A stretch of DNA of 37,235 nucleotides from a virus. This document shows positions 14,620 to 27,497 of the stretch, piece after piece. Numbering within the stretch: the stretch's first letter is position 1; each line of letters starts with the position of its first letter. The notes beneath the pieces are model-generated. The model was given only the letters and a program-made list of their open reading frames with translations. It was not told the origin of the DNA and searched no databases. A program made the position numbers and the translations under genes. Location of the stretch: positions 1-37,235 of the IMG/VR virus record IMGVR_UViG_3300034374_000801; one strand, 5' to 3'.

Positions 14620-14856
14620 CTATGCAGCTTGCATAAGTTCATCGATTTCCTGCGGCTCAAACACCAGACGATAACGTGTGTACGTAGTACCTTCAGGAGT
14701 TTTAGCTTTTACAGTTTCAATAACATAGCCATTCTTTCGTAGGTCAGAGATTGTTGCAGTAAGATTCTCTGACCAACCATTTTCGATTGCGGTCTTACGT
14801 GTTACACGCATACGCTTACGTAGTGCGCGTAGAACTTTTACTTCACAGTTATGCAT
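14620..14856 (-). CDS. Small winged-helix-like protein, module A only
   Basis: 78 residues; ATG preceded by agaaaggtata. The sequence reads as a compact winged helix: VLRALRKRMRVTRKTAIENG, then a recognition-helix-like NLTATISDLRKNGY and a two-strand wing (TTYTRYRLVF). It is basic at the N-terminus. It probably binds DNA and may regulate the operon. Module B has no equivalent; there the exonuclease follows the hairpin directly. So this gene was inserted in A or lost from B. Confidence 0.6.
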   Translation of the reverse strand: MHNCEVKVLRALRKRMRVTRKTAIENGWSENLTATISDLRKNGYVIETVKAKTPEGTTYTRYRLVFEPQEIDELMQAA

Positions 14857-14892
14857 ATTATACCTTTCTAAATTTTATTTTTTAAAGAAGGT

Positions 14893-14922
14893 GCTTACAG
14901 TCCCTTCCCTCAACCTGTAAGC
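14893..14922 (-). promoter_or_regulatory. Conserved hairpin with pyrimidine loop, copy A
   Basis: gcttacag (14893-14900) and ctgtaagc (14915-14922) pair perfectly over eight bases around the loop tcccttccctcaac (plus strand; GAGGGAAGGGA on the transcript). Copy B at 26954-26978 has a different stem but the same loop core, TCCC-n-CCCTC. It lies between ssb and the next gene, 36 bases before that gene's ATG. No T-run follows. Confidence 0.6.
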
Positions 14923-14926
14923 TATC

Positions 14927-14967
14927 GTTGTCCTTATGTAAGGCAATGTTATCCTTACTACGACAAC
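14927..14967 (-). other. Second intergenic hairpin
   Basis: gttgtc (14927-14932) pairs with gacaac (14962-14967), and gtaagg (14938-14943) with ccttac (14953-14958), leaving a nine-base loop. A nested ccttatgtaagg palindrome lies in the left arm and allows an alternative fold. It is adjacent to the conserved hairpin and has no counterpart in module B. Between this and the neighbouring genes I see no further coding potential. Confidence 0.45.
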
Positions 14968-14988
14968 CCCATCAATTGCTATATCAGG

Positions 14989-15480
14989 TTAAAAGGGAAT
15001 GTCATCACCCGCAGAGTGCGGCTTATTATTGTTAGAAGAGTTACTAACAACATAACCATCGTCAACATAATCAAAGTCCTCTCCATAGGGGATTAGGTTG
15101 ACAACCTGTACAGCAATCAGATCAGCGGATACGCCATGCTTCTTGTTGTATTCGTATTCATAAACTTTAAACTTAACATTAACATCACTGCCATTACCGA
15201 TCAGTGAGTTATCCCAAGGGTTGCGCTTTGAATCCACAACAGTAGGTGCTTCACGCTCAGTACCATCACGCTTCATAACCTTGCGCTTGATCTTAATAAA
15301 GTCACCTCTCTCATCACCCTTGTTCTGTATGTTCAGGCCAATGCTTTCTAACTCAACCTTGGTCTTCTCATCTAATGTTACATCAATGCACCATGCTGGT
15401 TCATATGTTGTGTTAGGAGCGCATACGCTTGCCCAATATGCTTTACCAGATACGAACTTTATTGAGTTTTCCATTTTCAA
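14989..15480 (-). CDS. ssDNA-binding protein, T7 gp2.5-like, copy A
   Basis: 163 residues. An OB-fold-like beta-rich body (AYWASVCAPNTTYEPAWCID onward) ends in a flexible Asn/Ser linker and an acidic tail closing with DDIPF. The terminal Phe after acidic residues is the feature by which gp2.5 contacts polymerase and primase-helicase. Copy B (27027-27497) aligns throughout and also ends in an acidic EDVPF. A sigma70-like promoter lies just upstream at 15508-15536, so ssb probably starts a transcript. Confidence 0.8.
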   Translation of the reverse strand: MKMENSIKFVSGKAYWASVCAPNTTYEPAWCIDVTLDEKTKVELESIGLNIQNKGDERGDFIKIKRKVMKRDGTEREAPTVVDSKRNPWDNSLIGNGSDVNVKFKVYEYEYNKKHGVSADLIAVQVVNLIPYGEDFDYVDDGYVVSNSSNNNKPHSAGDDIPF

Positions 15481-15507
15481 TTTTCCTTTTCAAGTTTCAG
15501 TTTTGTA

Positions 15508-15536
15508 TTTATGCCAGACTTGATTACCAAAGTCAA
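15508..15536 (-). promoter_or_regulatory. sigma70-like promoter before ssb, copy A
   Basis: On the minus strand, TTGACT, 17 bases, CATAAA. The box quality is moderate, but the position is conserved: module B has TTGACA-17-TACTAT at the same place. A cttga/tcaag inverted repeat touches the -35 box and could be an operator. Confidence 0.55.
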
Positions 15537-15547
15537 GCACTTTTTCA

Positions 15548-16117
15548 TCATAAAAGTTTTACTGCATCCTTGTAGTCAAGAAGAACTTCTTGTCCTACGT
15601 TGTAACAAGGTCTAACTAATTTACGATTACACCTGTTAAAATTTTCCTCTTGTACTAACAAGTTAGAAGGATAAAATCCTTTGAGACAAAATAAATCTTC
15701 GTCTAGTTTAACCATCAATGCAAATATGTCAACAACATTTTTACTTTCTGCACTTGTTGCAAGTAACATTCCAGTCTTGTGGTGTGTGGTCTTAACATCT
15801 ATTGTCAGACCGTCAAGAACTAAATCACCTAAATCAGTTTTAGATGACATTGATCTTGGATATATTTCCATTAACTGTGTTGGATAAAGTCCTGACAGTT
15901 TAAAGAAACTTAACTCACCTCCCGCTCCTATTATATCGAAGGCATAAGGATCATTCTTATCTCTTTTCGCGGCAGTGTCTTTTACTTTAGACTGTCTGTT
16001 ATTATCATACCTAGCTTTTCCAATAATTGTGTATAACTCTACCTCACTAGGTTCAAGTTTAATTAATGAGTCTCTGACCAGTTGTTTCCTATTTTGTACT
16101 CGCTGTCTAGTGGGCAT
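15548..16117 (-). CDS. Nuclease-like PD-(D/E)XK protein between ssb and polymerase, A
   Basis: 189 residues. A probable nuclease core is seen as GGELSFF (E68), DLGDLVLDG (around D98) and IDVKTT (D107-V-K109). The first 55 bases overlap the polymerase gene, and an aggaag ribosome site precedes the ATG. In module B the same slot holds a 164-residue protein (27782-28276) with GE, D and DVKT in the same order but otherwise little alignable sequence. The catalytic role is inferred from these residues; substrate and partners are unknown. Confidence 0.55.
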   Translation of the reverse strand: MPTRQRVQNRKQLVRDSLIKLEPSEVELYTIIGKARYDNNRQSKVKDTAAKRDKNDPYAFDIIGAGGELSFFKLSGLYPTQLMEIYPRSMSSKTDLGDLVLDGLTIDVKTTHHKTGMLLATSAESKNVVDIFALMVKLDEDLFCLKGFYPSNLLVQEENFNRCNRKLVRPCYNVGQEVLLDYKDAVKLL

Positions 16118-17724
16118 TTTATCAACAACTTCCTTTCAGTTTCTTTCATTGCTTTCTTCGTTATAGAACCAAACGATAAAGCATGTGGTTTAAAAACTTC
16201 AAACTGATACTCATCGTGTATTGATGCAACTAAATCAGCTTTTAATTTTAACTTGTTGTAAAGGAGAGTAATGTCTACTAACCATTGCTTACATATAACT
16301 GCTCCTGCTCCCTGAATGATAAGATTAACTGCTGCATGTTGATTGCGAACCTTCAATCTTCTGCCATCCAGTCCACGTATATACCCTAATCGAGATGTCT
16401 TGTCAACCTTTTGTCTGAAGGTTGCGAGTGCCGGTACGTTAGAAAGAAACGTATCAATCAGGCGCTGTCCATCAGTTGATGTACCTCCTACGATACTGCC
16501 TATCTTAGCTGCGCCAGCGCCGTAAATAAAGGCATAGATAAATGTCTTTGCTTGGTCACGAGTTTCTAGCCCTGCCGCTTTCTGATTAGCAGTATGAATG
16601 TCACCCTCGACAACTTCTTTCGTGAAGTTAGGATCGTCAAGATAGTGTGCCAATGCTCTTAGCTCAAGAGAACTAGCGTCACAACCAACAAGAACATTAT
16701 CAGGTTTTGAAACAGTCCAACACTCACGGCACTCCTTACCATAAGGAGAATATCCTGCTGGAACTTGTGCCATGTTTGGACTGTTATGTGCCATACGTCC
16801 AGAGATAGCACGAAGTGTAAGAACTTTTCCATGTACTTTTCCATCCTCTTGTACAGCATCTATCCAAGACTGAACTTGTGAAACTCTTTTTTGTAGAAGA
16901 AGATACTCTGCAATTATTTTTGCTTCAGGAATATCTACTTCCTTCAGAACGCTTTCATCCACGATTGGATGACCCTTCTCAGTCTTTTTATTAGGTTGCC
17001 AACCCTGCTCCATTAGGCGTTGGGCAATCTGTTGTCTGCTGGCAGGATTAAAGATAATAATCTTATCCTTTAATCTCTTACCTGTCTTGTCAGAGTATCT
17101 TTCTTCTATAACAGGAGGGTAACACTCTTGAAGATCAGATTCAATTTGTGTTGCCTTATCACGCAACCTGCATACTAAACTCATAGCCTTCTGTAAGTCA
17201 AGTGTAAATCCATTACTCTGCTGCTTAGATATCAAAGCTCTGATCCTGTACTCTAGATCAATGGAACGTCTGCTCATCTTTGCCTTCTGGCATTCCATCT
17301 TGAGGTGAATGTATAGCCTCCCAGTAAGATCAACATCACGTTTACAATACGTCAACATCTCTTCAGAAAAGTTGCTGAAATCGTGAAAGTCAATCTTGTT
17401 GTAATGGAAAGTGTTACCCCATGCCTCTAGAGAATGACCACCTTCTCTAACAGGGTCAAGAAGTTGTGACAGGATAAGAGTATCTTCCAACTGGTTTAGT
17501 TGGATGTTCGACCCTGTAAGTCTGTTGAGTACAGGAATATCAAACGATACAATGTTATGTCCAACAAACTTGCTAAACTGTTTACAATCAACAGGAAACT
17601 TTTTGTAACAATCTTCTTCAGTCCACACATGATATTTACCTGTCTGAGTTTCTTTGGCAACGATACAGTGAACCTTTGTAGCATCAAGACTATCTGTCTC
17701 AATGTCAATTAAAACCTCCGTCAT
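16063..17724 (-). CDS. DNA polymerase, family A (T7-like), copy A
   Basis: 553 residues from ATG 17724. A longer frame to 17763 exists, but the start at MTEVLIDIETDS aligns with copy B (MKHVVDIEADS) and cuts the overlap with the helicase gene to 20 bases. Exonuclease motifs: D7-x-E9, FVGHNIVSFDIPVLNR and YCKRDVDLTG. Polymerase motifs: A (DASSLELRAL), B (DQAKTFIYAFIYGAG) and C (ASIHDEYQF). So both proofreading and synthesis should work. It is the replicative polymerase, acting with the primase-helicase encoded just upstream. It lacks the 20-odd-residue insertion seen in copy B near residue 230. Confidence 0.92.
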   Translation of the reverse strand: MTEVLIDIETDSLDATKVHCIVAKETQTGKYHVWTEEDCYKKFPVDCKQFSKFVGHNIVSFDIPVLNRLTGSNIQLNQLEDTLILSQLLDPVREGGHSLEAWGNTFHYNKIDFHDFSNFSEEMLTYCKRDVDLTGRLYIHLKMECQKAKMSRRSIDLEYRIRALISKQQSNGFTLDLQKAMSLVCRLRDKATQIESDLQECYPPVIEERYSDKTGKRLKDKIIIFNPASRQQIAQRLMEQGWQPNKKTEKGHPIVDESVLKEVDIPEAKIIAEYLLLQKRVSQVQSWIDAVQEDGKVHGKVLTLRAISGRMAHNSPNMAQVPAGYSPYGKECRECWTVSKPDNVLVGCDASSLELRALAHYLDDPNFTKEVVEGDIHTANQKAAGLETRDQAKTFIYAFIYGAGAAKIGSIVGGTSTDGQRLIDTFLSNVPALATFRQKVDKTSRLGYIRGLDGRRLKVRNQHAAVNLIIQGAGAVICKQWLVDITLLYNKLKLKADLVASIHDEYQFEVFKPHALSFGSITKKAMKETERKLLIKCPLDSEYKIGNNWSETH

Positions 17725-19375
17725 TAAACTCGTTCCCTTCTGGATCTTCACCCAAGTTATCAACTTCGTGCAGTCTACCAGTTTCCTTATTGAAAAATAA
17801 GTGGCTTGCTACACCAGTGTCTCCTGCATAACGATTCTTTAAGACACGAATTGTTGTAGTGTTAGCAATGTTAGGATCATCTGACTGTTGATCACGTTCC
17901 ATAGCTATGACTGCATCACTAAGCTGTGCAATGGACTGTGACCCACGTAGGTGAGCAAGGCTAACTTCCTTACCATCCTCATGTCCTTTGTCCGTTCCAG
18001 TCCTACGCAGATGAGAGACAAGTAATAGAGCTACGTTTGTTTCTTCAACGATGGAACGCAGCTTGGTCATAAGATTATCAATGTTTCTACGTTCATCATC
18101 ACCTTCCAATCCTGAAACAAGGATTGATAGATGGTCAAGGAAAATCCACCGGCAGTCCAAAGCCTTAATCATATACCGTATGCGTGCAAGTATCTCGTCA
18201 GTCTGCATCGAACCAAAGTGATCGAAGGCAAAGAACCTTCTCGTTCCTACTGTTGCTTCCTGCCACTTCTTCAAGTCCTCACGGGGAAACTGTTCCCGTA
18301 TCTCACGAATGTAAATGCGTGCATTAGCCTCGACAGACATGAGATGGAAGATGGTTGATCGTACATTTTCTTCTAGAGAAATAACACCAATGTTTTCTTC
18401 AGTGTTGTTTAGTACATGATGCATCAGTTCACGCATGACACTTGACTTGCCAGTACCTGTGCCAGCGGTAAATGTAACAAGCTCACCTGTTCGTATGCCA
18501 TACAGCTTTTCGTTCAACCCTGCAAAAGGATAGAGGCATGTCTTATACTGCCCTTCCTCGTAGAGAGCATCACCCATATCAGCTAGATTTAGAATACCTG
18601 CTGGAGTGTAGACCTTAGCATTCCACCATGCCGTAGTAAATGCTTCTCGCTTACCATTAACTAGGTAATCACTAGCATCCTTGTAGTCAGGGAGGTTTAC
18701 GATCTTGCATTTGTTTGGTTCAAACAGACTAGCAACCTGCTGCGCTGCCTTACGTCCATGCTCATCGTTATCAAAGCTAAGAACAATGTTATCGAATGCG
18801 TTGAGGTATTCAAAGTTTGCTTTGCAGTTACGATGCGCTGACTGTGCACCATCTTTGATGGATAGGACAGGCCATTTAGAACCTAGCATCTCATATGCTG
18901 CGAGAGCATCAAGCTCACCTTCACAGATAGTGACGTACTTTCCACGGGCTGGAAAGATGTTCTGACCAAAGAGTGTACCACGACTAAGTGATCCTGCTGG
19001 TGCAGCAAAAAATTCTTTCTTTGCTACGTTCCTGATCTTGTCACCTATATGATTGCTGGCACTGTCATAGTACGGGTAGAGGTGACAAGAACCATGAACA
19101 GGATGGTCGTACTGTCTTACGTTATATGCTTTACATGTTGCAGCACTAATCTTTCTATCTTCGATGGCTGCTATTTTTCCTACATTACTGAGAGGCTGTA
19201 CGTTTGTAGTGACTGGTGTTTGCGTTTGAGTTGTCATACCGTGTCTTTCTGTATTGTGATATGAGCATGAAAAACAATGTCCATGACCATCAGCGTATAG
19301 AATATACGCATCACTAGATGCACATTTAGGGCAAGGACCGCGACTTACTACTCTGTCTTTATCTTCAATCATCAT
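17705..19375 (-). CDS. Primase-helicase, T7 gp4-like, copy A
   Basis: 556 residues in the order zinc finger, TOPRIM primase, linker, RecA-type helicase. Zinc ligands C15/C18 and C34/C37 (GPCPKC and HCFSC) recognise template sites. TOPRIM shows CEGELDA (E152) and FDND (202-204). The helicase has Walker A AGTGTGKS (304-311), Walker B WIFLDHLSIL and HLRGSQSIAQLSDA. It unwinds DNA and makes primers for the polymerase encoded next. The C-terminus is acidic and ends GGFN, near the acidic-aromatic tail by which gp4 binds polymerase. It overlaps the upstream small gene by 11 bases. Confidence 0.92.
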   Translation of the reverse strand: MMIEDKDRVVSRGPCPKCASSDAYILYADGHGHCFSCSYHNTERHGMTTQTQTPVTTNVQPLSNVGKIAAIEDRKISAATCKAYNVRQYDHPVHGSCHLYPYYDSASNHIGDKIRNVAKKEFFAAPAGSLSRGTLFGQNIFPARGKYVTICEGELDALAAYEMLGSKWPVLSIKDGAQSAHRNCKANFEYLNAFDNIVLSFDNDEHGRKAAQQVASLFEPNKCKIVNLPDYKDASDYLVNGKREAFTTAWWNAKVYTPAGILNLADMGDALYEEGQYKTCLYPFAGLNEKLYGIRTGELVTFTAGTGTGKSSVMRELMHHVLNNTEENIGVISLEENVRSTIFHLMSVEANARIYIREIREQFPREDLKKWQEATVGTRRFFAFDHFGSMQTDEILARIRYMIKALDCRWIFLDHLSILVSGLEGDDERRNIDNLMTKLRSIVEETNVALLLVSHLRRTGTDKGHEDGKEVSLAHLRGSQSIAQLSDAVIAMERDQQSDDPNIANTTTIRVLKNRYAGDTGVASHLFFNKETGRLHEVDNLGEDPEGNEFNDGGFN

Positions 19376-19556
19376 GATGAATCAGACGATACTCGAATTT
19401 GTTGGAAGAGTCTACCACTAATTTATTTTTTAATAGGGTAGTCTTAATACCTAGATACTTCATTAAAGCCTGTAGCGACAGAAGAACATCTTCCATTTCT
19501 TCGCTTGTTCCTTCATCTACAATATTATCTGTCTGACTGTTTATTACTCTGTACAT
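19365..19556 (-). CDS. Small protein upstream of primase-helicase, A
   Basis: 63 residues from ATG 19556 (a TTG at 19571 would add five). The reading is MYRVINSQTDN, then a helix of Glu, Leu and Met (EEMEDVLLSLQALMKYL) and a short basic-hydrophobic end. A 65-residue protein in the same slot of module B (31770-31967) has the same length, an MFYV start and a similar helix, so the two may be distant homologues. Function unknown. Confidence 0.6.
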   Translation of the reverse strand: MYRVINSQTDNIVDEGTSEEMEDVLLSLQALMKYLGIKTTLLKNKLVVDSSNKFEYRLIHHDD

Positions 19557-19606
19557 TTGAATCTCTTTCAATAGGGTTGAGAGTAATTAAGAGTTACTTA
19601 CTTATG

Positions 19607-19780
19607 TTATTTTTCCTGTTCAAAAATATTATTTACAAACCTATAGTCGTTTTGTTTAATCTCTTCTGTTTCTTCTGCGGCTAAACGCTTCGCTTCTTTG
19701 TAAGGATATCCTTCCTTTAGATATATCTGAATTAATTCTTTGAAGATAATCTTTCTATCTTTCTCCCATAACTTTTTCAC
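19607..19780 (-). CDS. 57-residue conserved micro-protein, copy A
   Basis: GTG start directly after the stop of the 47-aa gene, 57 residues. The reading VKKLWEKDRKIIFKEL, later EGYPYKEAKRLAAEE, aligns along its full length with a 57-residue frame at 32853-33026 (KNLWVKDRKIVFREL and EGYSSKEAKRLAKQE). Conservation between the two modules, despite many silent and replacement differences, is the evidence that it is a gene. A helical, charged protein of unknown function. Confidence 0.75.
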   Translation of the reverse strand: MKKLWEKDRKIIFKELIQIYLKEGYPYKEAKRLAAEETEEIKQNDYRFVNNIFEQEK

Positions 19781-19924
19781 TTAACCCTGTCCTCTATATT
19801 TTTTATAATTTCTTTTTTTACTTTTATTTTTAGGAGAAGTATTAACTGACTTGCCAATACTGGTTCTCATATGTTGGTTTCCTGTTCGCACTTTAGATAA
19901 ACCAATTTCTTTTTTACCTGCCAT
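19781..19924 (-). CDS. 47-residue basic micro-protein, copy A
   Basis: 47 residues, very basic. The second half, RTSIGKSVN then SPKNKSKKR and YKKYRGQG, is matched in module B at 33521-33661 (RTSIGRSAN, QPKNKHKRQ, WKKYRGQGS), while the first half differs. In both modules it directly follows thyX. A nucleic-acid-binding role is plausible from charge alone. The shared GQG ending and identical position show it is a gene despite its size. Confidence 0.72.
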   Translation of the reverse strand: MAGKKEIGLSKVRTGNQHMRTSIGKSVNTSPKNKSKKRNYKKYRGQG

Positions 19925-19933
19925 TTTGTCCTC

Positions 19934-20602
19934 TTAACTTTTCAAGTCGTTTGTCAAAGCATTCCATGACACAGGAAATAAAGGTTCAATAATCTTACTC
20001 CATTCTTCAGCAAGTATCTGTATCTCACGTTGTGCGTGCTTGTCAATACGTAATTGATATGCTCTTGCCCAAGCAGCTAAAGAGCCTGTAACGTAATAGC
20101 TTGTGTACAAACATTGTGGCAATACCATTCTTGCCTGTTCTGGACATACTCCTTCTTTCAGTAACTGCTTGTAGTGATACTCACAGGTATCAATTACCTT
20201 TTCCAAGAACATATCACCATAGGATGGAGTATCAATAGGTTCTTCACTGCTACCTTGCTTCACATTCTCTGCTGACTTACGCCATCTATCAGGACGAAAG
20301 TATTCCCTATCGTCAGTAACATATCGTCTACTAACTTCATTGTAAGTAAACCCTACTACATGTTTGAACCTTTGCCTAGCTACAAATATTGGAACTGTTT
20401 CTCTTATCGTTATGATTGGGTGTGTAAACGGGGTGAAGTGATTGTTGTTTGAAAGATAATTAATTAACTTTTTATCTTTGTCCGACAACTCCTGCCGTAC
20501 TGAGTGGTCTGCTTCCCATTTACTTTCTTTATTAAAAGAAACTCTAGCGGCGTTGACAACACGAAGATCATCTCCTAAATGATCAATGTATTCTGCTCTC
20601 AT
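19934..20602 (-). CDS. thyX: Flavin-dependent thymidylate synthase, copy A
   Basis: 222 residues. ThyX makes dTMP from dUMP with FAD, NADPH and methylene-tetrahydrofolate. Family landmarks: VVNAARVSFNKES near the start, HFTPFTHP, the RQRFKH...NEVSRRY signature (about 76-94), and the C-terminal WARAYQLRIDKHAQREI helix. The usual RHR-x7-S motif is degenerate (KH in place of RHR), and copy B shows the same change. It stands four bases beyond the start of the coiled-coil gene next to it, in the dTTP-supply part of the operon with dCMP deaminase. Confidence 0.88.
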   Translation of the reverse strand: MRAEYIDHLGDDLRVVNAARVSFNKESKWEADHSVRQELSDKDKKLINYLSNNNHFTPFTHPIITIRETVPIFVARQRFKHVVGFTYNEVSRRYVTDDREYFRPDRWRKSAENVKQGSSEEPIDTPSYGDMFLEKVIDTCEYHYKQLLKEGVCPEQARMVLPQCLYTSYYVTGSLAAWARAYQLRIDKHAQREIQILAEEWSKIIEPLFPVSWNALTNDLKS

Positions 20603-20799
20603 TTAGTTAATTTATCCTTGCTTAATTCTTCAAGTTCATCTTCAATTTTATTTAACTTATTTTTCAAGAAATCTTTTTCATCTGTTAACTCTTTAATCTG
20701 TTTATACTGTTCATAGATAACTTTAGTTAATTGTTTGTTATCTTCTTTAGCAGCTAATAGAAGTTCTTTGTTTTTAATATTAGAATTATTATTCACCAT
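20599..20799 (-). CDS. Small coiled-coil protein, module A
   Basis: 66 residues, almost entirely Lys/Glu/Asn/Leu with heptad-like leucines, predicted as one long coiled coil. The start overlaps the stop of the 57-aa gene at 20789-20962 and the end overlaps the thyX start by four bases. No equivalent is seen in module B. Function unknown. Confidence 0.6.
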   Translation of the reverse strand: MVNNNSNIKNKELLLAAKEDNKQLTKVIYEQYKQIKELTDEKDFLKNKLNKIEDELEELSKDKLTK

Positions 20800-20962
20800 T
20801 CTTTAATTCCATAAGTACATAGTTAATAGTAGTATATATCTTAACTGCTAAGTCTTGTAACTGAATTTCCTGCTGTAGTGTTGTATAACGTATGTCATTT
20901 GCACTATCAAGTATTTCATTTAACTTACCAATTAAGATATTTATTTCTTTATCTTTGTTCAT
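20789..20962 (-). CDS. 57-residue helical micro-protein, module A
   Basis: From ATG 20962 (ATGA overlap with the upstream stop) to TAA 20789, reading MNKDKEINILIGKLNEIL and ending MELKNGE. It is helical and Leu/Ile-rich without a membrane segment. It fills the only gap between two overlapping genes, and both of its ends overlap its neighbours as elsewhere in the operon. No homologue in module B. Function unknown. Confidence 0.6.
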   Translation of the reverse strand: MNKDKEINILIGKLNEILDSANDIRYTTLQQEIQLQDLAVKIYTTINYVLMELKNGE

Positions 20963-21219
20963 GGTGCGTTGTCACCATATCCACCAGTCGGCCACTTATC
21001 ATCGAATAAGTTCGTTTGATTAGTAACATCATCAGTGATAATGTTTACTGAGCATTGACAAAATCTTGAGGAAACTTCTTGTAACAATTCTTTTCTTCGT
21101 AGTAAATCTTCTTCAGTTGGTTTGTAAAAAGTATCACGATTAGTTTCCAATTCTTGAATAAGAATATTCATTAATTTTTGATTATCTATTTTACTAAACC
21201 ATTCTTTATCTTCCGTCAT
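20959..21219 (-). CDS. Small acidic protein, unknown function
   Basis: 86 residues, with an ATGA overlap to the dCMP deaminase gene upstream (21216) and to the micro-gene downstream. Acidic, with a CxC (RFCQCSV) in the middle and a short Gly/Trp-rich end (KWPTGGYGDN). I do not recognise it. Absent from module B. Confidence 0.6.
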   Translation of the reverse strand: MTEDKEWFSKIDNQKLMNILIQELETNRDTFYKPTEEDLLRRKELLQEVSSRFCQCSVNIITDDVTNQTNLFDDKWPTGGYGDNAP

Positions 21220-21626
21220 AGTAAAACAACCTCCTCTTTTCTACCCGTTGAATAGTAAACATTATCAATATCAAACTCTACTATACATCTATAGCATCCG
21301 TCGCATGGTTTAGCAAGTGCTAACTTAAAAATGTTTGATCTTGTGCTGTCTTTCTTGACTCTGACAACAATTAGTGTACAGTTCCTAGATAAATCCTGCT
21401 GCTGTCTTACCGCATTCTTAATTGCTGCCACCTCTGCATGTAGATGAATACAATGTTCATGTCTACCATACTTAGCCTGAAAGGGACTGGTCTTATAGCT
21501 ATTAACTCCAAGACCTATAAGGTTATTCTTATGCCATACTCCTGCTGCTAACCGGAAACATTTTACTGGGTTGTGTATATCCTCCGCGATCCTACGAAGA
21601 ATCGTTACTCTCCTGCTCAAGTCCAT
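21216..21626 (-). CDS. dCMP/cytidine deaminase-family enzyme, copy A
   Basis: 136 residues. Zinc-site residues H63-A-E65 (HLHAEVAAI) and P-C108-x2-C111 (KPCDGC) define the deaminase family. Placed with thyX, the likely reaction is dCMP to dUMP, feeding thymidylate synthesis. Compared with typical dCMP deaminases it is short, lacking an allosteric insert. Copy B (34355-34783) keeps HAE and PCxxC and a NSYKT-PFQAK segment. An activity on free cytidine cannot be excluded from sequence. The start overlaps the upstream gene by 35 bases. Confidence 0.78.
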   Translation of the reverse strand: MDLSRRVTILRRIAEDIHNPVKCFRLAAGVWHKNNLIGLGVNSYKTSPFQAKYGRHEHCIHLHAEVAAIKNAVRQQQDLSRNCTLIVVRVKKDSTRSNIFKLALAKPCDGCYRCIVEFDIDNVYYSTGRKEEVVLL

Positions 21627-21780
21627 TGTATTCTTCTATCTCTGCTGTTGTCCAAAGGTGAGCGTTGAGTTGAGCATCGGGCCAATGATCAAACACCATT
21701 GGTTCAAGGGTTCTCTCATCCACAACATATAACCAATCATCTTTATCTTTTGTCTGGTAAACCTTAACTCTCCACGGCAT
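21592..21780 (-). CDS. Small Trp-rich protein, unknown
   Basis: 62 residues, four tryptophans, begins MPWRVKVYQTKD and ends acidic (LEQESNDSS). It overlaps both neighbours by 17 and 35 bases. No motif recognised and no copy in module B. Confidence 0.55.
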   Translation of the reverse strand: MPWRVKVYQTKDKDDWLYVVDERTLEPMVFDHWPDAQLNAHLWTTAEIEEYNGLEQESNDSS

Positions 21781-22024
21781 TTATTTTAATCCCTCTAGTA
21801 GTTCCATTTTCTTTACTCATTGCATGATATTCTTTGCAGACTTCTTCAAACGCATCAAAGAGCTTTTGAAATCTCATACTATATACACCCTTTAATCCAA
21901 GAAGTACATTAGCAATGTCATCAGTAGACATATCTGTTTCTATAACATTCTCATAGAGAAGGTCAATGTCATCTACAACACGCCAAGCATTCATAATCTC
22001 TTGTTCAAGACCAAATATTTTCAT
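21764..22024 (-). CDS. Small helical protein carrying the direct repeat
   Basis: 86 residues, helical and acidic in the first two-thirds. The segment VCKEYHAMSKENG near the C-terminus is encoded by the 25-base direct repeat at 21816-21840. The same codons in the same frame recur as a relic after the MazG gene at the A/B junction, so a related gene probably once stood there. Function unknown. Confidence 0.6.
   Translation of the reverse strand: MKIFGLEQEIMNAWRVVDDIDLLYENVIETDMSTDDIANVLLGLKGVYSMRFQKLFDAFEEVCKEYHAMSKENGTTRGIKINAVES
21816..21840. repeat. 25-bp direct repeat, left copy
   Basis: ctcattgcatgatattctt plus tgcaga, identical to 22963-22987; the similarity goes on for about 13 bases on the left (minus-strand downstream) side with two mismatches. 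It lies inside the 86-aa gene. The two copies bracket 1122 bases holding three small genes, and recombination between them would remove that block. Confidence 0.9.
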
Positions 22025-22428
22025 TATTCAACCTCAACCATTTCACCATTGCGAACAATGTGATGTTTAACTTCATTTGATGAAAACCTAAAGTATGCTC
22101 GACCGCCGTCAATCATATTACCGTTCTCAAACAATTTATAATCATGACGATGGGCACTATACTGTAGATCACCATCATCATCTTCGACAAGTCTAAACTC
22201 TACAGATTCAATTCGATCTGCATTAGCAATCATAAGATTGCCGTTCTGATATAGACCAAAATACCGATTACCGAACTGAGGGTGTGGAGTTTCTCTGTAA
22301 AAGATATCCATTGCATGTGCCCCATCGTCTATCGCACTTGTACACACATAGGTAATGGGAACACCATCCTTCTTAGAGAAGATTTCACAAACCTTTTGAG
22401 TGTCAAATAGTGGTTCATGCTTGATCAT
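22024..22428 (-). CDS. Conserved small phage protein, unknown
   Basis: 134 residues, alternating beta-like segments, many aromatic and acidic residues (FGLYQNGNLMIANADRIE in the middle), no signal or membrane segment. Its stop overlaps the next ATG by one base. It lies within the 1.1-kb block between the direct repeats. No homologue in module B. Function unknown. Confidence 0.6.
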   Translation of the reverse strand: MIKHEPLFDTQKVCEIFSKKDGVPITYVCTSAIDDGAHAMDIFYRETPHPQFGNRYFGLYQNGNLMIANADRIESVEFRLVEDDDGDLQYSAHRHDYKLFENGNMIDGGRAYFRFSSNEVKHHIVRNGEMVEVE

Positions 22429-22476
22429 TCAAACTACTCCCAATCTTGATATCTCATTCGAGAATCCAATCCATTA

Positions 22477-22716
22477 TCACCATCCCGGCGCTGTATATTC
22501 TGTATGTTTCTTATAGAAAGCAGACCCATCTACTCCATATGCAGGACACACTGAAATGTACTCAGGCAAACCCACTCTATCCTTCTCACCTGCTTCTCCA
22601 CAGATAAAAAACACACCAGTCTTTTCAGACATTGCATGTTTGAGAATGGTCTCGTACTTCTCAACCTTCTTACGAAGGAGTAGTACTTCCTCATAGTAAT
22701 CCATCGTATCAGTCAT
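22477..22716 (-). CDS. Small phage protein with coiled-coil start
   Basis: 79 residues. The first half is a heptad-like helix (YEEVLLLRKKVEKYETILKH), the second half contains FFICGEAGEK and CPAYGVDG. Two cysteines might bind metal but the spacing is not a known finger. It overlaps the 81-aa gene by eight bases. A 48-base gap downstream shows nothing clear. Confidence 0.55.
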   Translation of the reverse strand: MTDTMDYYEEVLLLRKKVEKYETILKHAMSEKTGVFFICGEAGEKDRVGLPEYISVCPAYGVDGSAFYKKHTEYTAPGW

Positions 22717-22954
22717 CCTCTTTCACCATTGGATTTATTTCCATCCACTCGGACCAATCAGCATGTGGCATATAGTATTCAAGCACAGTTTGAATCGCTT
22801 TAAGCAAAACATAGTCTGGCTCAAGAACGTCATCTGAACAGTCAACCTTGTCAAACTGATTGTTCACATGATAAGCGTCCTTTAGCTCATCAACGATAAC
22901 TTCGTCAACGATAACTTGGACGCAATCTTCAACGTTAAGTGTAATCGTTTTCAT
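22709..22954 (-). CDS. First gene of module A, small acidic protein
   Basis: 81 residues, acidic, ATG preceded by the strong site gaggaaac. The last bases of the right-hand 25-bp repeat supply part of that site. Inside the gene a 15-base tandem repeat encodes the VIVDE-VIVDE pair. Similar short proteins of the MKTITLNVED type occur in marine phages, without known function. Being next to the A/B junction, it may belong to either parental phage. Confidence 0.6.
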   Translation of the reverse strand: MKTITLNVEDCVQVIVDEVIVDELKDAYHVNNQFDKVDCSDDVLEPDYVLLKAIQTVLEYYMPHADWSEWMEINPMVKEDD

Positions 22955-22962
22955 TTTGTTTC

Positions 22963-22987
22963 CTCATTGCATGATATTCTTTGCAGA
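22963..22987. repeat. 25-bp direct repeat, right copy, with gene-tail relic
   Basis: Identical to 21816-21840. On the minus strand it reads ICKEYHAMRKQNE in the frame that continues past the MazG stop codon, matching CKEYHAMSKEN of the 86-aa gene. Only about 12 codons survive, so this is a relic of a related gene or the homology at which two genomes were joined. Confidence 0.85.
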
Positions 22988-22991
22988 TCAG

Positions 22992-23348
22992 TCATCGCTC
23001 ATCCCCATCACCTTTCAGTACGTTACGTTGCTGTCTGTCTGCCAGCTTCTGTAAATTACCCTGTGCTATGTCTTCAAGTTCCAGACCAAGGACATATGCC
23101 ATCTCGCTGACGAACCAGAGTACATCACCAAGTTCTTTATTAATAGTAGGAAGGTCAATGTGATCTTTGTCACCTCGCACCCACTTGCTGACAAGAGAAG
23201 CTACCTCTCCAGCCTCACTAGCAAGACCAAGAGCAGTATAAATAATGCCGTTATCCTTCGGATAGACGGCAGTCTTATGTGCTTCCTCCTGATATTTTCT
23301 AAAAGTAACTCCAGTTAAATACTTATTATCGTAAGGCACTGTACCCAT
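22992..23348 (-). CDS. MazG-like nucleotide pyrophosphohydrolase
   Basis: 118 residues from ATG 23348, which has a taggagt ribosome site; an upstream ATG at 23399 would overlap nrdJ by 47 bases and lacks one. MazG-family metal ligands are visible as SEAGEVASLVSKW and KELGDVLWFVSE (the ExxE and ExxD pairs). Such all-alpha enzymes hydrolyse NTPs or dNTPs to monophosphates; phage versions may adjust nucleotide or ppGpp pools. It follows nrdJ copy B; in module A that slot holds the 54-aa frame instead. Confidence 0.78.
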   Translation of the reverse strand: MGTVPYDNKYLTGVTFRKYQEEAHKTAVYPKDNGIIYTALGLASEAGEVASLVSKWVRGDKDHIDLPTINKELGDVLWFVSEMAYVLGLELEDIAQGNLQKLADRQQRNVLKGDGDER

Positions 23349-23352
23349 ACTC

Positions 23353-25038
23353 CTATACTCCACAAGAACCACCATGCTGCGTAATGTCGCAGATGTCATG
23401 CGTCTCTACACTCTCCTCAAACTCTTCACCAAGCTTGTCAACTGCTTCAGCGTATGAGACAGATGTTAGTGGCTGACCACCACGGCACCCATCAGGGTAC
23501 ACAGTAAAGCCACGTAGACGATGGGCATAAGATGCAAGGGTGTTAGCAAAGTCATCAACTGTATCTTCGTTGTTAAGTTTGCTTCCCCATGTTGGGATGT
23601 TAATCGTGGAAGAGATTGACATATCCACATAGTCCTGAACGTCAGCTTGGAAAGCCATACGGCGCTTGTAGTCCTGTGCAAGATCAAGTGCGGACTCAAT
23701 GTTGTTAGGGTCTACACCATGCACATCAATGATTTCCTGTGCAGCGGAGTCAACAACGTACTGGTAGTGCCACCTGTTCTGTCCTTTTAGATACCGCCGT
23801 TTATAGGCGACAGCAAATATAGGCTCAACACCAGTGGAAGTCCCAGCCAAAATGCCAATCGAACCCGTGGGGGCAATTGCTCTGTTAGCCACAGGACGGG
23901 AAACAGACATAGCATCAGCAAAGTCACGGCTAACACTATCAGAAACGCCTTTGTAGATTCCCAACCACTGATGCAATTCGGGAGTGACCTCATAACGGTA
24001 TCCTTTCTTAATCAGCCACTCGTGCATACCCATAAGGCCAAGGCCCAAGCGACGGTTCTTTTCACGTGTCTCATATACCTTGCTATAAGGCAGCTTGGCA
24101 CGTAGGGTTCCGCAAAGAAGGAACTTGGTTCCTAGCTCTACGATCTGAGTAAATTCTTCAAGGCTATCAATGCGGCCCATGTTAATGCTACCCAAGTTAC
24201 ACACGTCTGAGTCATCTTCAGATGTTACCTCAGTACAAGCATTGCGTAGCGTTTCATTCTCTTTATCAAAGAAGTTAAAAGAGAACCCCGGTTCGGCGGT
24301 TGATAGGGCTTGACGAACATTTGTCCGAAATACGCCACCTACTTCTCCTGTCTTCCAATAGTTAGTAAGCCATGCAGTGTCATAGTTGACAGAGATGTTT
24401 GTCATGTCCAGAGGGGCAATGTAGTTAAAGTCCTGCTCCTTTACCTGCCCAACGGTAAAGCCTGTGTTGCCTACGGGCATTTCATACCAGTTCTTAGCAG
24501 CAAGAAACTGTGTTACATCAGGGTGTTGCCAATTAAGACTGGCATAGATAGCTGACCTACGTGAGCCACCCTGCATGACACGACGACCAATCTCGTTAAT
24601 CATCTGCATCTTGGGGATAGGCCCACTGGAAAGACCGCCTGTGCCGTTAAGCACACGACCTTCTTCACGATACACAGAGTAGTCAACACCAATGCCCCCG
24701 CCTGTCATCAGGCAGGACTCAGCCTTCCAAGATAGGTTGGCCCAGTCTTCACGTGTGTCTTCTTCAGCACGTAGAAGGTAGCAGTTATTGAAGAACTTGT
24801 TGGGACGACCAGCATAATATAGGTAGCGTCCACCCGGAATGAACTTCAAGTCAGTAACCATACGCTTGAGTTCGTCCTTCTCATCTTGTGTCATGTAGTC
24901 TTGACACACATCGTCCACTAGAACATTAGCTAGTGCCGACCAAGTTTCACACCCATGATGGGCATACTTATGTTTGAAAATATCCTCACTGAACTTGGAT
25001 CGGAACATAGGGTTTTCGTTAGAGCGGAAATGAGGCAT
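23353..25038 (-). CDS. nrdJ: Class II ribonucleotide reductase, copy B
   Basis: 561 residues, the same length as copy A and the most similar pair in the window. All catalytic cysteines are kept: NNCYLL, NACTE, DVCNLGSIN and the two C-terminal cysteines (HDICDI and GSCGV). Differences cluster at residues 40-60 and other surface-looking positions, and the DNA is more GC-rich. It uses adenosylcobalamin, like copy A, so a host able to make or import B12 is implied. The gene begins three bases after the DUF3310 gene and ends five bases before MazG. Confidence 0.9.
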   Translation of the reverse strand: MPHFRSNENPMFRSKFSEDIFKHKYAHHGCETWSALANVLVDDVCQDYMTQDEKDELKRMVTDLKFIPGGRYLYYAGRPNKFFNNCYLLRAEEDTREDWANLSWKAESCLMTGGGIGVDYSVYREEGRVLNGTGGLSSGPIPKMQMINEIGRRVMQGGSRRSAIYASLNWQHPDVTQFLAAKNWYEMPVGNTGFTVGQVKEQDFNYIAPLDMTNISVNYDTAWLTNYWKTGEVGGVFRTNVRQALSTAEPGFSFNFFDKENETLRNACTEVTSEDDSDVCNLGSINMGRIDSLEEFTQIVELGTKFLLCGTLRAKLPYSKVYETREKNRRLGLGLMGMHEWLIKKGYRYEVTPELHQWLGIYKGVSDSVSRDFADAMSVSRPVANRAIAPTGSIGILAGTSTGVEPIFAVAYKRRYLKGQNRWHYQYVVDSAAQEIIDVHGVDPNNIESALDLAQDYKRRMAFQADVQDYVDMSISSTINIPTWGSKLNNEDTVDDFANTLASYAHRLRGFTVYPDGCRGGQPLTSVSYAEAVDKLGEEFEESVETHDICDITQHGGSCGV

Positions 25039-25041
25039 CAG

Positions 25042-25317
25042 CTACTCCTTTTCATTAGCGGTATCGTGGACATGAAGCATGATAATAGCATAGTGGATAA
25101 TCTTGAGCAAGTCCTTACGGTTCTTTCCATCCTTTTTTCCATACCTTTTCCAGTATTTCAATATGTTGCCCATACAAAATCCTTCGCCATAATCAGCATC
25201 AAGGATTGTGTCAGTTGCCTGATACTTACTAGACGCATAGTGCTGTGTATAAGTTGCGTCTACGTAGTCCTGAATCTCATCGAGATACAGGTTCTCATCG
25301 AACTTGTACTTTGTCAT
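25042..25317 (-). CDS. DUF3310 / T7 gp1.7-like protein, copy B
   Basis: 91 residues. It keeps HYAS, GEGFCMGNILKYWKRYGKKDG and DLLKIIHYA, aligned with copy A at 12625-12975 but with a shorter N-terminus (MTKYKFDENLYLDEI) and a shorter tail. The same family-based inference of a nucleotide kinase-like role applies, with the same uncertainty. It is located between the helical protein gene and nrdJ, exactly as in A. Confidence 0.65.
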   Translation of the reverse strand: MTKYKFDENLYLDEIQDYVDATYTQHYASSKYQATDTILDADYGEGFCMGNILKYWKRYGKKDGKNRKDLLKIIHYAIIMLHVHDTANEKE

Positions 25318-25325
25318 TGTTACCT

Positions 25326-25664
25326 CTAGATGTTTGACAAGATAGAGTTTATTTTCTTTCTTGTGTATTCAACTTCTTTGCTCCGTATAACCTTGTATGC
25401 AAAGCTTCTTGTGTAACCCGCATCAATACCTGCCATGTCACACACGGCTGTAAAGTCTTCAGAGGTTACGCCCACACTGGCAAAGAACCATGCTTGTGCA
25501 TGTGTCCTGTCCAGCTTGGCGCGTTCAGATTCATTTTTCGTTGATGGCTTAGACGCATCAAGCAACGCCTGTAAGATGACAGTCATAAACAGGATTCGTT
25601 CAGGTGACGATTGCTCCTGCATGTAGTCTTCAATCTCAATAAAGATGTCTGTCACTGCAGCCAT
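25326..25664 (-). CDS. Conserved helical phage protein, copy B
   Basis: 112 residues, starting MAAVTDIFIEIEDYM. The C-terminal half (WFFASVGVTSEDFTAVC, GIDAGYTRSFAYKV) is nearly the same as copy A. Overlap with the endonuclease gene is only 13 bases, a cleaner arrangement than in module A. Function unknown; a helix-turn-helix-like pattern is the only clue. Confidence 0.65.
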   Translation of the reverse strand: MAAVTDIFIEIEDYMQEQSSPERILFMTVILQALLDASKPSTKNESERAKLDRTHAQAWFFASVGVTSEDFTAVCDMAGIDAGYTRSFAYKVIRSKEVEYTRKKINSILSNI

Positions 25665-26065
25665 TCCTCTGGAATACCATCAGATAGTTTGCAGTACAGG
25701 AAGCCGTGCCTCTCGCACCATTGAGCATATGTCTTTCCATTTGGTGCTTTAGTTAGCTTCTTGTTTGGATTGTCAAACACAAAGCGTATGTCAAGATGTG
25801 GGTGTGCCTCTTTAATCCGTAGATGTTTTGCCCTATCGTGAGCCTTGAACCATCCTTTGACTTCAAGATATACTCCATTTGGTAACAGAAAGTCAGGTGT
25901 ATATTTTCTTGTTGCAACGACAGGATACTCAATACGCTCTGTCTCGTACTTGATGGCAACCCCAAGCATAAGAAGGTACTCAGCTACAGTTACCTCTGAA
26001 CCCGATCTAAACTTCTTATTTTTTAGACCTCTTTTTGAAGACCGCTTCGCAGGTTTTCTTGGCAT
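25652..26065 (-). CDS. T7 endonuclease I-like resolvase, copy B
   Basis: 137 residues. Catalytic set E24 (RSGSE), D58 (YTPDFLLP), E68-V-K70 (LEVKGWF), then KTYAQWCERHG. It has a basic N-terminal extension of about 15 residues (MPRKPAKRSSKRG) missing in copy A, and it stops at WLQ where copy A runs on. Both are likely active junction resolvases. The start overlaps the exonuclease stop by one base. Confidence 0.82.
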   Translation of the reverse strand: MPRKPAKRSSKRGLKNKKFRSGSEVTVAEYLLMLGVAIKYETERIEYPVVATRKYTPDFLLPNGVYLEVKGWFKAHDRAKHLRIKEAHPHLDIRFVFDNPNKKLTKAPNGKTYAQWCERHGFLYCKLSDGIPEEWLQ

Positions 26066-26931
26066 TAGTCGAGACTATCCAAAGAAATTTCCTCAACGTC
26101 AGAAAGCTTTTGAGTTTGGGTAAGATAGCGGATACCGTTTGAATAGTTGAAGGCGCGAAGTCCTTGACCGTTGTTAGCATCACTCCAACAAGTTCTTTTA
26201 AAAGAACAATATACGCAGCCAGTATCAAGGCGACGATTGCCAGATTTGCCATCAGGAACATCGCTATAACACCTACTGGGAGGAGTGCTATGTCCAACAA
26301 CTCCACGAACTTTTTCAATCCGTTCTTCAGCATTAATCATCTCCAGATCATGTATGGGCAGGTAGGCAATCTCACCATTGGATTTATCAATGGCAAGAAA
26401 CCCTGCCTCTTTCGCGTTCTCTGCTTTGGCATAGGAAGAAATCTGTGCGATGTATCCGAAAGGGTCATCACCTGAAAGGTGTCCGTACTTAAACTTCCTA
26501 AACCCAAAGGGTGATGCACTCTTGAAGTCAACGAGTGTGCCGTCGATCTTACCATCAATGTGTCCTAGCACACCGTTGACCTCAACCTCCTTCTGTTCAT
26601 CCGTTACTTCATGTCCTGATGTACGAGTGAGTAGAACAAGTAGTGCTTCAAGAATATCTCCAAACAAAAATTTAATACGGGTGCTTGAAGAAAGTGTCTC
26701 CTGTGGGGCTTGGTTTATTTCATACCAAATCTTACGATCAGGTTGCCCCACAAGAGACAGTCTTAGGTTGGCCTTTCTGTCGCGCTTCTCTTCAATGGAT
26801 CGACGCACTGACATACTGACCTGCTCAATGAAGGCTTCCATGTCAGCATCTGATACCACACGCTCGTTCTCATCGGAGAACAAACTGTATATATCTTCAA
26901 CCACGGTTTCAATGGACTTATGTTCTGACAT
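26065..26931 (-). CDS. PD-(D/E)XK exonuclease (RecB/Cas4-like), copy B
   Basis: 288 residues aligned along their length with copy A. The nuclease core (FLFGDILEALL, GHIDGKIDG, VDFKSASPFG) and the cysteine cluster GCVYCSFKRTC, plus the earlier RCYSD, are all present, so a metal cluster is likely in both. The ATG has agaaaggtata before it, the same ribosome site as the 78-aa gene of module A, and the conserved hairpin lies 22 bases upstream. Role as for copy A: a T7 gp6-like function in DNA breakdown or recombination. Confidence 0.75.
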   Translation of the reverse strand: MSEHKSIETVVEDIYSLFSDENERVVSDADMEAFIEQVSMSVRRSIEEKRDRKANLRLSLVGQPDRKIWYEINQAPQETLSSSTRIKFLFGDILEALLVLLTRTSGHEVTDEQKEVEVNGVLGHIDGKIDGTLVDFKSASPFGFRKFKYGHLSGDDPFGYIAQISSYAKAENAKEAGFLAIDKSNGEIAYLPIHDLEMINAEERIEKVRGVVGHSTPPSRCYSDVPDGKSGNRRLDTGCVYCSFKRTCWSDANNGQGLRAFNYSNGIRYLTQTQKLSDVEEISLDSLD

Positions 26932-26953
26932 GGTATACCTTTCTTTTTGTTAA

Positions 26954-26978
26954 GGCTTGGTCCCGCCCTCTCCAAGCC
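26954..26978 (-). promoter_or_regulatory. Conserved hairpin with pyrimidine loop, copy B
   Basis: ggcttgg (26954-26960) and ccaagcc (26972-26978) pair perfectly around the loop tcccgccctct. Compared with copy A, the stem sequence is different but still fully paired, while TCCC and CCCTC in the loop are kept. It sits between ssb and the exonuclease gene. It lacks a T-run, so it is not an ordinary terminator. Confidence 0.6.
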
Positions 26979-27026
26979 GGTGTGCTGCTCTATATCGTGA
27001 CCGCATCCCCGTGAATGTTCTATCTC

Positions 27027-27497
27027 TTAGAAAGGAACATCTTCAGAGATAGTTGTGTCGTGCTTGTAGCCGCCATCAACGACAGGCAGAGCATCTTCAG
27101 CTTTGCTGCCGCTGTATTCTACAAGATCGACAACCTGTACAACCTGAAGGTCTGCACTCTTACCTGCACGACCTTGGTATGTGTACTCATAAGGCTTGTA
27201 CATTACATTCACCTTACTGCCGTTACCAATCAGTGTATCCTTGATTGGGTTCTTCTCACTGTCAACAACAGACGGTGGCTGGTTGTTATCGCCACGAGCG
27301 TTACGAACCTTACGCTTGATCGTGATAAAGTTACCACGATCATCTCCCTTGTTCTTGACGTTAAGACCGTCGCCCTGAACCTTGGATAGATTGTCATCGT
27401 CTAGGCATACGTCAATTTGCCACACACCATCTGCATCAAACGTGGTGTTAGGGGTTACAACTGATGCCCAGTATGCGGTTCCAGAAATTACAGTCAT
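27027..27497 (-). CDS. ssDNA-binding protein, T7 gp2.5-like, copy B
   Basis: 156 residues. The start AYWASVVTPNTTFDADGVWQ, the central NKGDDRGNFITIKRKV and the acidic C-terminal EDVPF agree with copy A and with the gp2.5 design of OB fold plus acidic-aromatic tail. An aaggaga ribosome site precedes the ATG, itself preceded by a small gccac/gtggc hairpin and a strong promoter at 27549-27577. Confidence 0.8.
   Translation of the reverse strand: MTVISGTAYWASVVTPNTTFDADGVWQIDVCLDDDNLSKVQGDGLNVKNKGDDRGNFITIKRKVRNARGDNNQPPSVVDSEKNPIKDTLIGNGSKVNVMYKPYEYTYQGRAGKSADLQVVQVVDLVEYSGSKAEDALPVVDGGYKHDTTISEDVPF

What the first reader, a model, noticed from the sequence alone, without database searches (positions are those of the whole stretch)
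14893..26978. Covarying hairpin with conserved loop downstream of ssb in both modules
At 14893-14922 the stem is gcttacag/ctgtaagc, and at 26954-26978 it is ggcttgg/ccaagcc. The stems differ yet both pair perfectly, while the loops keep TCCC-n-CCCTC (GAGGG-n-GGGA on the transcript). Both lie after ssb and before the next gene, whose ribosome site agaaaggtata is also conserved. Compensatory change with a kept loop suggests a selected structure: a protein-binding RNA element, perhaps autoregulation by the ssDNA-binding protein, or a single-strand initiation site.
Basis: seen in the sequence. Interest (0 to 1): 0.72.

Follow-up and report, generated by a model that had tools for sequence, protein, structure and literature searches.

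The report
Folded RNA behind phage ssb gene
A small RNA fold with two hairpins and a guanine-rich loop sits right behind the gene for the DNA-coating protein in many uncultured phages; its shape is kept while its letters change, it matches no catalogued RNA family, and it probably marks or protects the end of that gene's message.

Summary
The hairpins are real and are half of a larger element. On the transcript: (C/A)A(C/A)GGG(G) – helix P1 – short linker – helix P2 with a G-rich loop (such as GUGnGGAGnGGGA or GAGGGnGGGA), starting 8-36 nt behind the stop codon of a gp2.5-like ssb. A covariance model not built on the window finds copy 1 (E 1.3e-4); copy 2 is too divergent to score (E 4). On 46 distinct relatives all 12 modelled pairs change on both sides; parsimony counts about 60 compensated changes. 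G·U far exceeds A·C (52 vs 8), so the sense strand folds, most likely as RNA. Of 103 loop-sequence hits in IMG/VR contigs, 62 lie behind an ssb and all 62 have the stem. Downstream genes are unrelated. No Rfam match; absent from 12 isolate-phage stretches and 142 alphaproteobacterial genomes (no positive control). Some relatives without it carry a terminator-like hairpin or a tRNA gene in its place. Best reading, inferred only: an RNA 3'-end, processing or stability device for ssb mRNA. SSB autoregulation stays possible; a single-strand initiation site is disfavoured.

The parts
14893..14973 (-). element copy 1 (whole): GAUGGGG leader, P1 with nested P1a, linker, P2 with G-rich loop
   Evidence: cmsearch R2, window not in the model: 14973-14895, 25.7 bits, E 1.3e-4; minimum-energy fold equals the model's P1/P2, z -4.5
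14927..14967 (-). P1 of copy 1 (GUUGUC 14967-14962 / GACAAC 14932-14927), with nested helix P1a (GUAAGG/CCUUAC, 14958-14953 / 14943-14938)
   Evidence: fold; relatives L003/L005 have GACAGC, a G-U pair
14893..14922 (-).
26954..27013 (-). element copy 2 (whole): CACGGGG leader, P1 with one mismatch, P2 with short loop
   Evidence: same slot and order; weak to the model (6.8 bits, E 4); close relatives L084 18.1 bits E 0.018, L086 12.6 bits E 0.36, L083 8.9 bits E 2.7
26984..27007 (-). P1 of copy 2 (GAUGC 27007-27003 / GCAGC 26988-26984; one A-G mismatch)
   Evidence: sequence against L083 GCUGC/GCAGC
26954..26978 (-).
14989..15480 (-). gp2.5-like ssDNA-binding protein gene of module 1 (first ATG at 15474)
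   Evidence: PHROG phrog_112, E 5.9e-11
27027..27497 (-). gp2.5-like ssDNA-binding protein gene of module 2
   Evidence: PHROG phrog_112, E 8e-15
14620..14856 (-). gene downstream of copy 1: 78-aa winged-helix protein (HTH_39)
   Evidence: Pfam PF14090, E 4.1e-6
13715..14593 (-). Cas4-domain exonuclease, module 1
   Evidence: phrog_1990, E 9e-39
26065..26931 (-). gene downstream of copy 2: Cas4-domain exonuclease, module 2
   Evidence: phrog_1990, E 4e-43
14859..14869 (-). AGAAAGGUAUA, ribosome site before the HTH_39 gene
   Evidence: sequence
26934..26944 (-). AGAAAGGUAUA, ribosome site before the exonuclease gene of module 2
   Evidence: sequence

Best explanation
It is a cis-acting structured RNA in the 3' untranslated stretch of the phage ssb message: a G-led helix P1 and a helix P2 whose purine loop probably packs into a fixed tertiary fold. 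Shown: that the structure exists, is under selection, is on the sense strand, and travels with ssb and not with the next gene. Inferred: that it works at the 3' boundary of the ssb message. As a compact fold starting 8-36 nt behind the stop codon it would stop 3'-to-5' exonucleases or set a processing site, so that ssb, needed in quantity, outlives the downstream part of the polycistronic transcript. It would then do without a U-tract what an intrinsic terminator or a processed tRNA does in relatives.
For: Structure: model R1 (20 sequences) gives 39 matches at E<=2 in 76 sources, 403 kb, all in different loci; R2 gives 75 matches in three searches of 264 sources (E<=5, 1, 1), 73 of them 8-33 nt behind an ssb stop codon, the other two being the weakest (E 0.41 and 0.5). 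12 of 12 pairs with changes on both sides, 95.7% of cells paired against 65.4% in shuffles; about 60 double compensated changes on the ssb tree, 12 single, 16 to or from unpaired, on 51 tips. Loop-only scans of viral contigs: 62 of 103 hits behind ssb, all 62 with P2 of at least 6 bp. One copy per record: 18 of 28 whole records have exactly one match, 10 none. Linked to ssb: among 75 loci the next gene falls into nine unrelated clusters, among them GDP-mannose dehydratase, DUF3310 and an FkbM methyltransferase. Slot exchange: relatives without it have terminator-like hairpins there (L025-L033 group, HTVC103P, HTVC104P, L333) or a tRNA-Thr gene (L260-L263), and on the ssb tree some of these sit inside element-bearing groups.
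Against: No expression, decay or end-mapping data exist here; the function is inferred from position and replacement. The automatic count of the slot found 83 of 133 groups with the element (11 of them also called terminator-like, and at least one of those, L315, a parser artefact), 9 with a terminator only, and 41 with neither; many of the 41 are remote ssb genes followed at once by the next gene, so the slot is not always filled. The terminator-only class includes 4 closely related groups (L277, L280, L281, L283) whose hairpin may be coding. A conserved loop is more than a plain stabiliser needs and suggests a specific partner.
Confidence: 0.4

Rival explanations
1. SSB autoregulation: the gp2.5-like protein binds the P2 loop on its own message and changes its translation or decay.
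For: Always directly behind ssb, the only constant neighbour. Precedent for phage SSB binding its own message: T4 gp32 (PMC535899, passages read).
Against: The T4 operator is in the 5' leader; this is 3'. The element seems lost and replaced by terminator-like hairpins and a tRNA while ssb stays. A G-rich loop is kept with ssb proteins that share little sequence (about 27-33% between the A3 and A4 groups).
Confidence: 0.16
2. RNA-polymerase-binding antiterminator or anti-pausing element like HK022 put.
For: Size and make-up resemble put: about 70 nt, two stem-loops, RNA alone (PMC9378689, passages read).
Against: put lies behind early promoters; this lies mid-operon behind ssb. Terminator-like hairpins in the same slot of relatives suggest the opposite task. 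No sequence comparison with put was made.
Confidence: 0.1
3. Self-cleaving or metabolite-binding RNA (ribozyme or riboswitch), acting on the ssb 3' end or on the next gene.
For: Conserved unpaired G-rich loop and GGG leader with free stems look like a folded active or binding site; 14-51 nt to the next start codon in nearly all loci.
Against: No Rfam match at gathering score in 11 sources, and none better than E 6.6 in two focused searches. Nine unrelated downstream gene clusters argue against a riboswitch for the next gene.
Confidence: 0.12
4. Trans-acting small RNA released from the ssb 3' end (for example a decoy for a G-binding host factor).
For: 3'-UTR position and a conserved exposed loop.
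Against: No evidence of a separate transcript; no target found or sought.
Confidence: 0.1
5. Single-stranded DNA site (primase or origin signal) on the strand that has the sequence of the transcript.
For: Lies among replication genes.
Against: 52 G-U against 8 A-C cells at helix positions; one fixed place behind a stop codon, co-oriented with ssb.
Confidence: 0.04

Closest known systems
L17 downstream element (RF01708 in the paper's table)
   Same: structured RNA tied to the 3' side of one gene, with many G-U pairs on the transcribed strand used as the argument for RNA
   Different: Lactobacillales and Listeria ribosomal operon; GNRA tetraloops; no Rfam match here (passages of PMC2864571; Rfam)
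T4 / RB69 gene 32 translational operator
   Same: structured RNA on a phage ssb message
   Different: 5' leader pseudoknot plus UUAAA repeats (PMC535899 passages); here 3', two hairpins, G-rich loop
HK022 put RNA
   Same: about 70 nt phage RNA of two stem-loops
   Different: early-promoter position, known RNAP contacts (PMC9378689 passages); no sequence comparison made
STAXI motif
   Same: found near ssb genes
   Different: tandem pseudoknots with UUCG loops, Enterobacteriales (PMC2864571 passages)
intrinsic terminator behind ssb
   Same: same slot in relatives
   Different: 60 of 75 element copies lack a U-rich tail; loop and leader conserved

Membership tests
any Rfam 15 family | score at or above the curated cut-off | tested here: not met
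   0 matches in 11 sources, 114,764 bases; focused searches: none for copy 1 up to E 10, one chance-level match (E 6.6) for L087
intrinsic terminator | GC-rich hairpin followed by a U-tract | tested here: not met
   15 of 75 copies have at least 5 T in the 8 nt behind P2, 60 do not
intrinsic terminator | stops transcription | not testable with these tools
   needs an in vitro or in vivo termination assay
gp32-type ssb operator | lies in the 5' leader of ssb | tested here: not met
   73 of 75 model matches lie 8-33 nt behind the ssb stop codon
gp32-type ssb operator | bound by the SSB protein | not testable with these tools
   needs a binding assay
HK022 put RNA | downstream of an early promoter | tested here: inconclusive
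   element is mid-operon behind ssb; promoters were not mapped
HK022 put RNA | binds the RNAP beta' zinc-binding domain | not testable with these tools
   needs a biochemical or genetic assay
structured RNA under selection | compensatory changes in helices beyond chance | tested here: met
   12 of 12 pairs, 197 cells with both sides changed against 68 in shuffles; about 60 compensated events on the tree
structured RNA under selection | sense-strand RNA and not DNA | tested here: met
   G-U 52, A-C 8, other mismatches 14; R-scape not available
cobavirus-type variant (A10) as the same element | found by the model of the main group | tested here: not met
   R2 without filters finds none of the six given (L242, L246, L248, L252, L257, L258); same order GGG-P1-P2 and slot, own covariation in 6 of 12 pairs

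The most novel reading that the evidence does not exclude
A new class of compact folded RNA, G-led and closed by a G-rich loop, that by itself makes the 3' end of a phage message, by blocking exonucleases or by cutting itself, in place of a terminator.
Probability: 0.2. Interest if true: 0.85.

Novelty: new variant of a known kind. Interest (0 to 1): 0.62.

Why it matters
A structured RNA with about sixty compensated changes on the tree, tied to one replication gene across diverged uncultured phages and absent from Rfam, is a clear, testable object. If it forms message ends or senses SSB, it shows how compact phage operons give one gene much more product than its neighbours without promoters or U-tract terminators. 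It is also a handle to find such phages in metagenomes.

Tried and rejected
Direct DNA comparison with annotated phages gave almost nothing. MAFFT alone misaligns the stems; a seed alignment was chosen by a greedy script that kept only sequences whose parsed helices fall in the same columns, then the covariance model was iterated (R1, R2; a third model was not built). Because the seed was chosen for consistent helices, the covariation on A7-A9 leans towards the structure; the independent supports are model matches outside the seed, the loop-only scans and window copy 1.

Rows dropped: of 228 ssb-bearing loci a loose parser found a candidate in 147 (86 distinct); I removed 11 by eye, ten as parser artefacts (L027, L031, L038, L069, L297, L304, L307, L310, L312, L315) and L196 for an ambiguous P1, leaving 75. 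58 of the more remote ssb loci (in the range L253-L320) were never searched with R2 (listed, third batch).

Considered and rejected: Shine-Dalgarno or anti-SD pairing of the P2 loop (GGAG/GAGG is missing in several loop types); a four-tract G-quadruplex (the would-be fourth tract is paired in P1 and absent in several subgroups; by eye); a pseudoknot between leader and loop (no consistent covarying columns outside P1/P2); CsrA-type GGA loop (recalled only, not tested). In host genomes: 0 of 142 alphaproteobacterial genomes matched (stricter filters, no positive control, so weak). In isolates: 0 significant in 12 stretches. Literature: searches (listings) showed no paper on an ssb-linked 3' RNA in these phages; the library lacks most subscription papers.

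In one search the gene finder skipped TTG starts, so for a few loci (L175, L181, L182) it named the exonuclease about 292-296 nt away instead of the small HTH gene in between. In one search slot labels were set by hand and about ten tips marked '?' in fact carry the element.
Full report
WHAT WAS CLAIMED AND WHAT IS THERE. The window is an IMG/VR virus record with two related replication modules on the minus strand. The loop motif occurs in the window only at these two places. Folding statistics on their own are strong for copy 1 and weak for copy 2. The second module's copy would not have been convincing without relatives.

THE ELEMENT IS LARGER. Fetching relatives by the neighbouring exonuclease and by ssb and printing the stretch behind ssb showed a common order: (C/A)A(C/A)GGG(G), a helix P1 (mostly 5-7 bp) with a loop of 7-38 nt, a linker of 0-9 nt, a helix P2, and a P2 loop with two G tracts (75 distinct copies kept of 86 parsed, 11 dropped by eye, see Tried and rejected). 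Loop types: GUGnGGAGnGGGA, GUUGAGGGAAGGGA (window copy 1), AGAGGGyGGGA (window copy 2 and relatives), UAGYGUAGGGUUGGGUAC, UGCGAGGGYGGGAAC, AGYGCGGGAGGGAG, and GAAGAGGYGGUAG in cobavirus-like contigs.

IS IT SELECTED. Model R1, from 20 sequences (A7), was run on 76 sources (403 kb, both strands): 39 matches at E<=2, in 39 different loci; 20 of these were the seeds. Model R2 was run on 264 sources in three searches: 75 matches, of which 73 begin 8-33 nt behind an ssb stop codon; the two others are the weakest (E 0.41, 0.5). Without filters R2 finds window copy 1 at E 1.3e-4, a sequence neither in R1 nor in R2; copy 2 only at E 4, and further subgroups (L006, L237, L208, L187/L188/L180/L177, L084/L086/L083) at the expected place with E between 3e-4 and 2.7. 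On the R2 alignment (46 distinct rows) all 12 pairs have changes on both sides, 95.7% of cells pair (shuffles 65.4%, best slide 55.3%), covariation 0.858 against 0.304. Since cells are not events, I placed the pairs on an ssb protein tree: about 60 double compensated changes, 12 single, 16 to or from unpaired, 51 tips. The outer P2 pairs (columns 57-94, 58-93) are poorly aligned and give 11 of the 16.

INDEPENDENT CHECK. To avoid choosing by ssb, I scanned viral contigs for three loop sequences alone and then asked about stem and neighbour. Pattern a: 86 hits, 50 behind an ssb, all 50 with P2 of at least 6 bp; of 36 others, 5 have at least 5 bp: L379 is the true element at a contig edge, the other four share one unrelated sequence that looks to me like the end of a tRNA gene read in antisense (recalled, not tested). 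Pattern b: 8 of 8 behind ssb with stem. Pattern c: 4 of 9 behind ssb with stem, 5 of 9 neither. Together 62 of 103 behind ssb, 62 of 62 with the stem.

RNA OR DNA, AND WHOSE. At helix positions of the alignment the sense strand has 52 G-U and 8 A-C cells; a structure of the other strand would show the reverse. Whole-record search: 18 of 28 records have one match each, 10 have none (five of these are cobavirus-type, which R2 does not detect); no record has two. The upstream gene is ssb (phrog_112 in nine of ten further representatives; L037 gave no hit). The downstream gene falls into nine clusters among 75 loci: Cas4-like exonuclease, HTH_39, GDP-mannose 4,6-dehydratase, small proteins without a Pfam match, DUF3310, FkbM methyltransferase and others. 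So the element goes with ssb.

WHO LACKS IT. Twelve stretches of named phages gave nothing significant. HTVC103P and HTVC104P have an intrinsic-terminator-like hairpin with a T run there; so do L025-L033 and L070-L076, and a Sneathiella-binned contig, L333, has a similar hairpin. L260-L263 have a tRNA-Thr gene there. On the ssb tree the L025 group, L091/L093, L333 and L260 lie among element-bearing tips, which suggests replacement; this tree has no support values shown and labels were set by hand. An automatic count over 133 distinct ssb 3' stretches gave 72 element, 11 element plus terminator-like call (at least one, L315, an artefact), 9 terminator only (4 of them closely related and possibly coding), 41 neither.

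HOW IT LIKELY WORKS. Shown: a selected sense-strand fold at a fixed place behind ssb. Inferred: because unrelated RNA devices that define message ends take its place, it most likely defines or guards the 3' end of the ssb part of the transcript. It is not an ordinary intrinsic terminator: 60 of 75 copies have no U-rich tail. The conserved loop and GGG leader speak for a specific tertiary fold or partner. SSB feedback, put-like action on RNA polymerase, self-cleavage, and a released small RNA all remain open.

COMPARISON. Not in Rfam 15 at gathering score. The nearest ideas are the L17 downstream element (3'-side element of one gene; PMC2864571, passages), the gene 32 operator of T4/RB69 (phage ssb message but 5'; PMC535899, passages), HK022 put (two stem-loops, about 70 nt; PMC9378689, passages) and STAXI (near ssb, but tandem pseudoknots; PMC2864571, passages). 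It is filed as none of these.

LIMITS. The alignments were seeded by helix-consistent sequences, so pair counts lean towards the structure. R-scape was not available. The cobavirus-type variant shares order, slot and a related loop and has its own covariation (6 of 12 pairs; three of the 13 rows are shifted in P2), but the model does not connect it; I treat it as a probable relative. The host search (0 of 142 genomes) had no positive control.

Noticed in passing
window about 22900-23400: G+C steps from about 38% to about 46%, and the replication set (ribonucleotide reductase, exonuclease, ssb, polymerase, primase-helicase, ThyX) occurs twice; a close relative of module 2 (L084's contig) matches the window only from 23351 on. 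The record may be a chimera of two related phages.
   Followed up: partly
L260-L263:2990-3065: tRNA-Thr (UGU) gene directly behind ssb, in the slot that holds the RNA element in relatives.
   Followed up: yes
window 14938-14958 (-): An extra helix P1a nested in the P1 loop of copy 1, not seen in most relatives.
   Followed up: no
L239, behind ssb: A seemingly degenerate form: GUCUAGC/GCUAGAC closing one long loop that holds the G tracts.
   Followed up: no
L123:3723-3787 and L125:626-690: The only two R2 matches not behind an ssb, at chance level (E 0.5 and 0.41).
   Followed up: no
L336, L339, L350, L353, L356 and others: A recurrent other sequence containing the loop motif (CTGGAGGTGCGGAGAGGGACTT), perhaps a tRNA 3' half read in antisense (recalled, not tested).
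   Followed up: no
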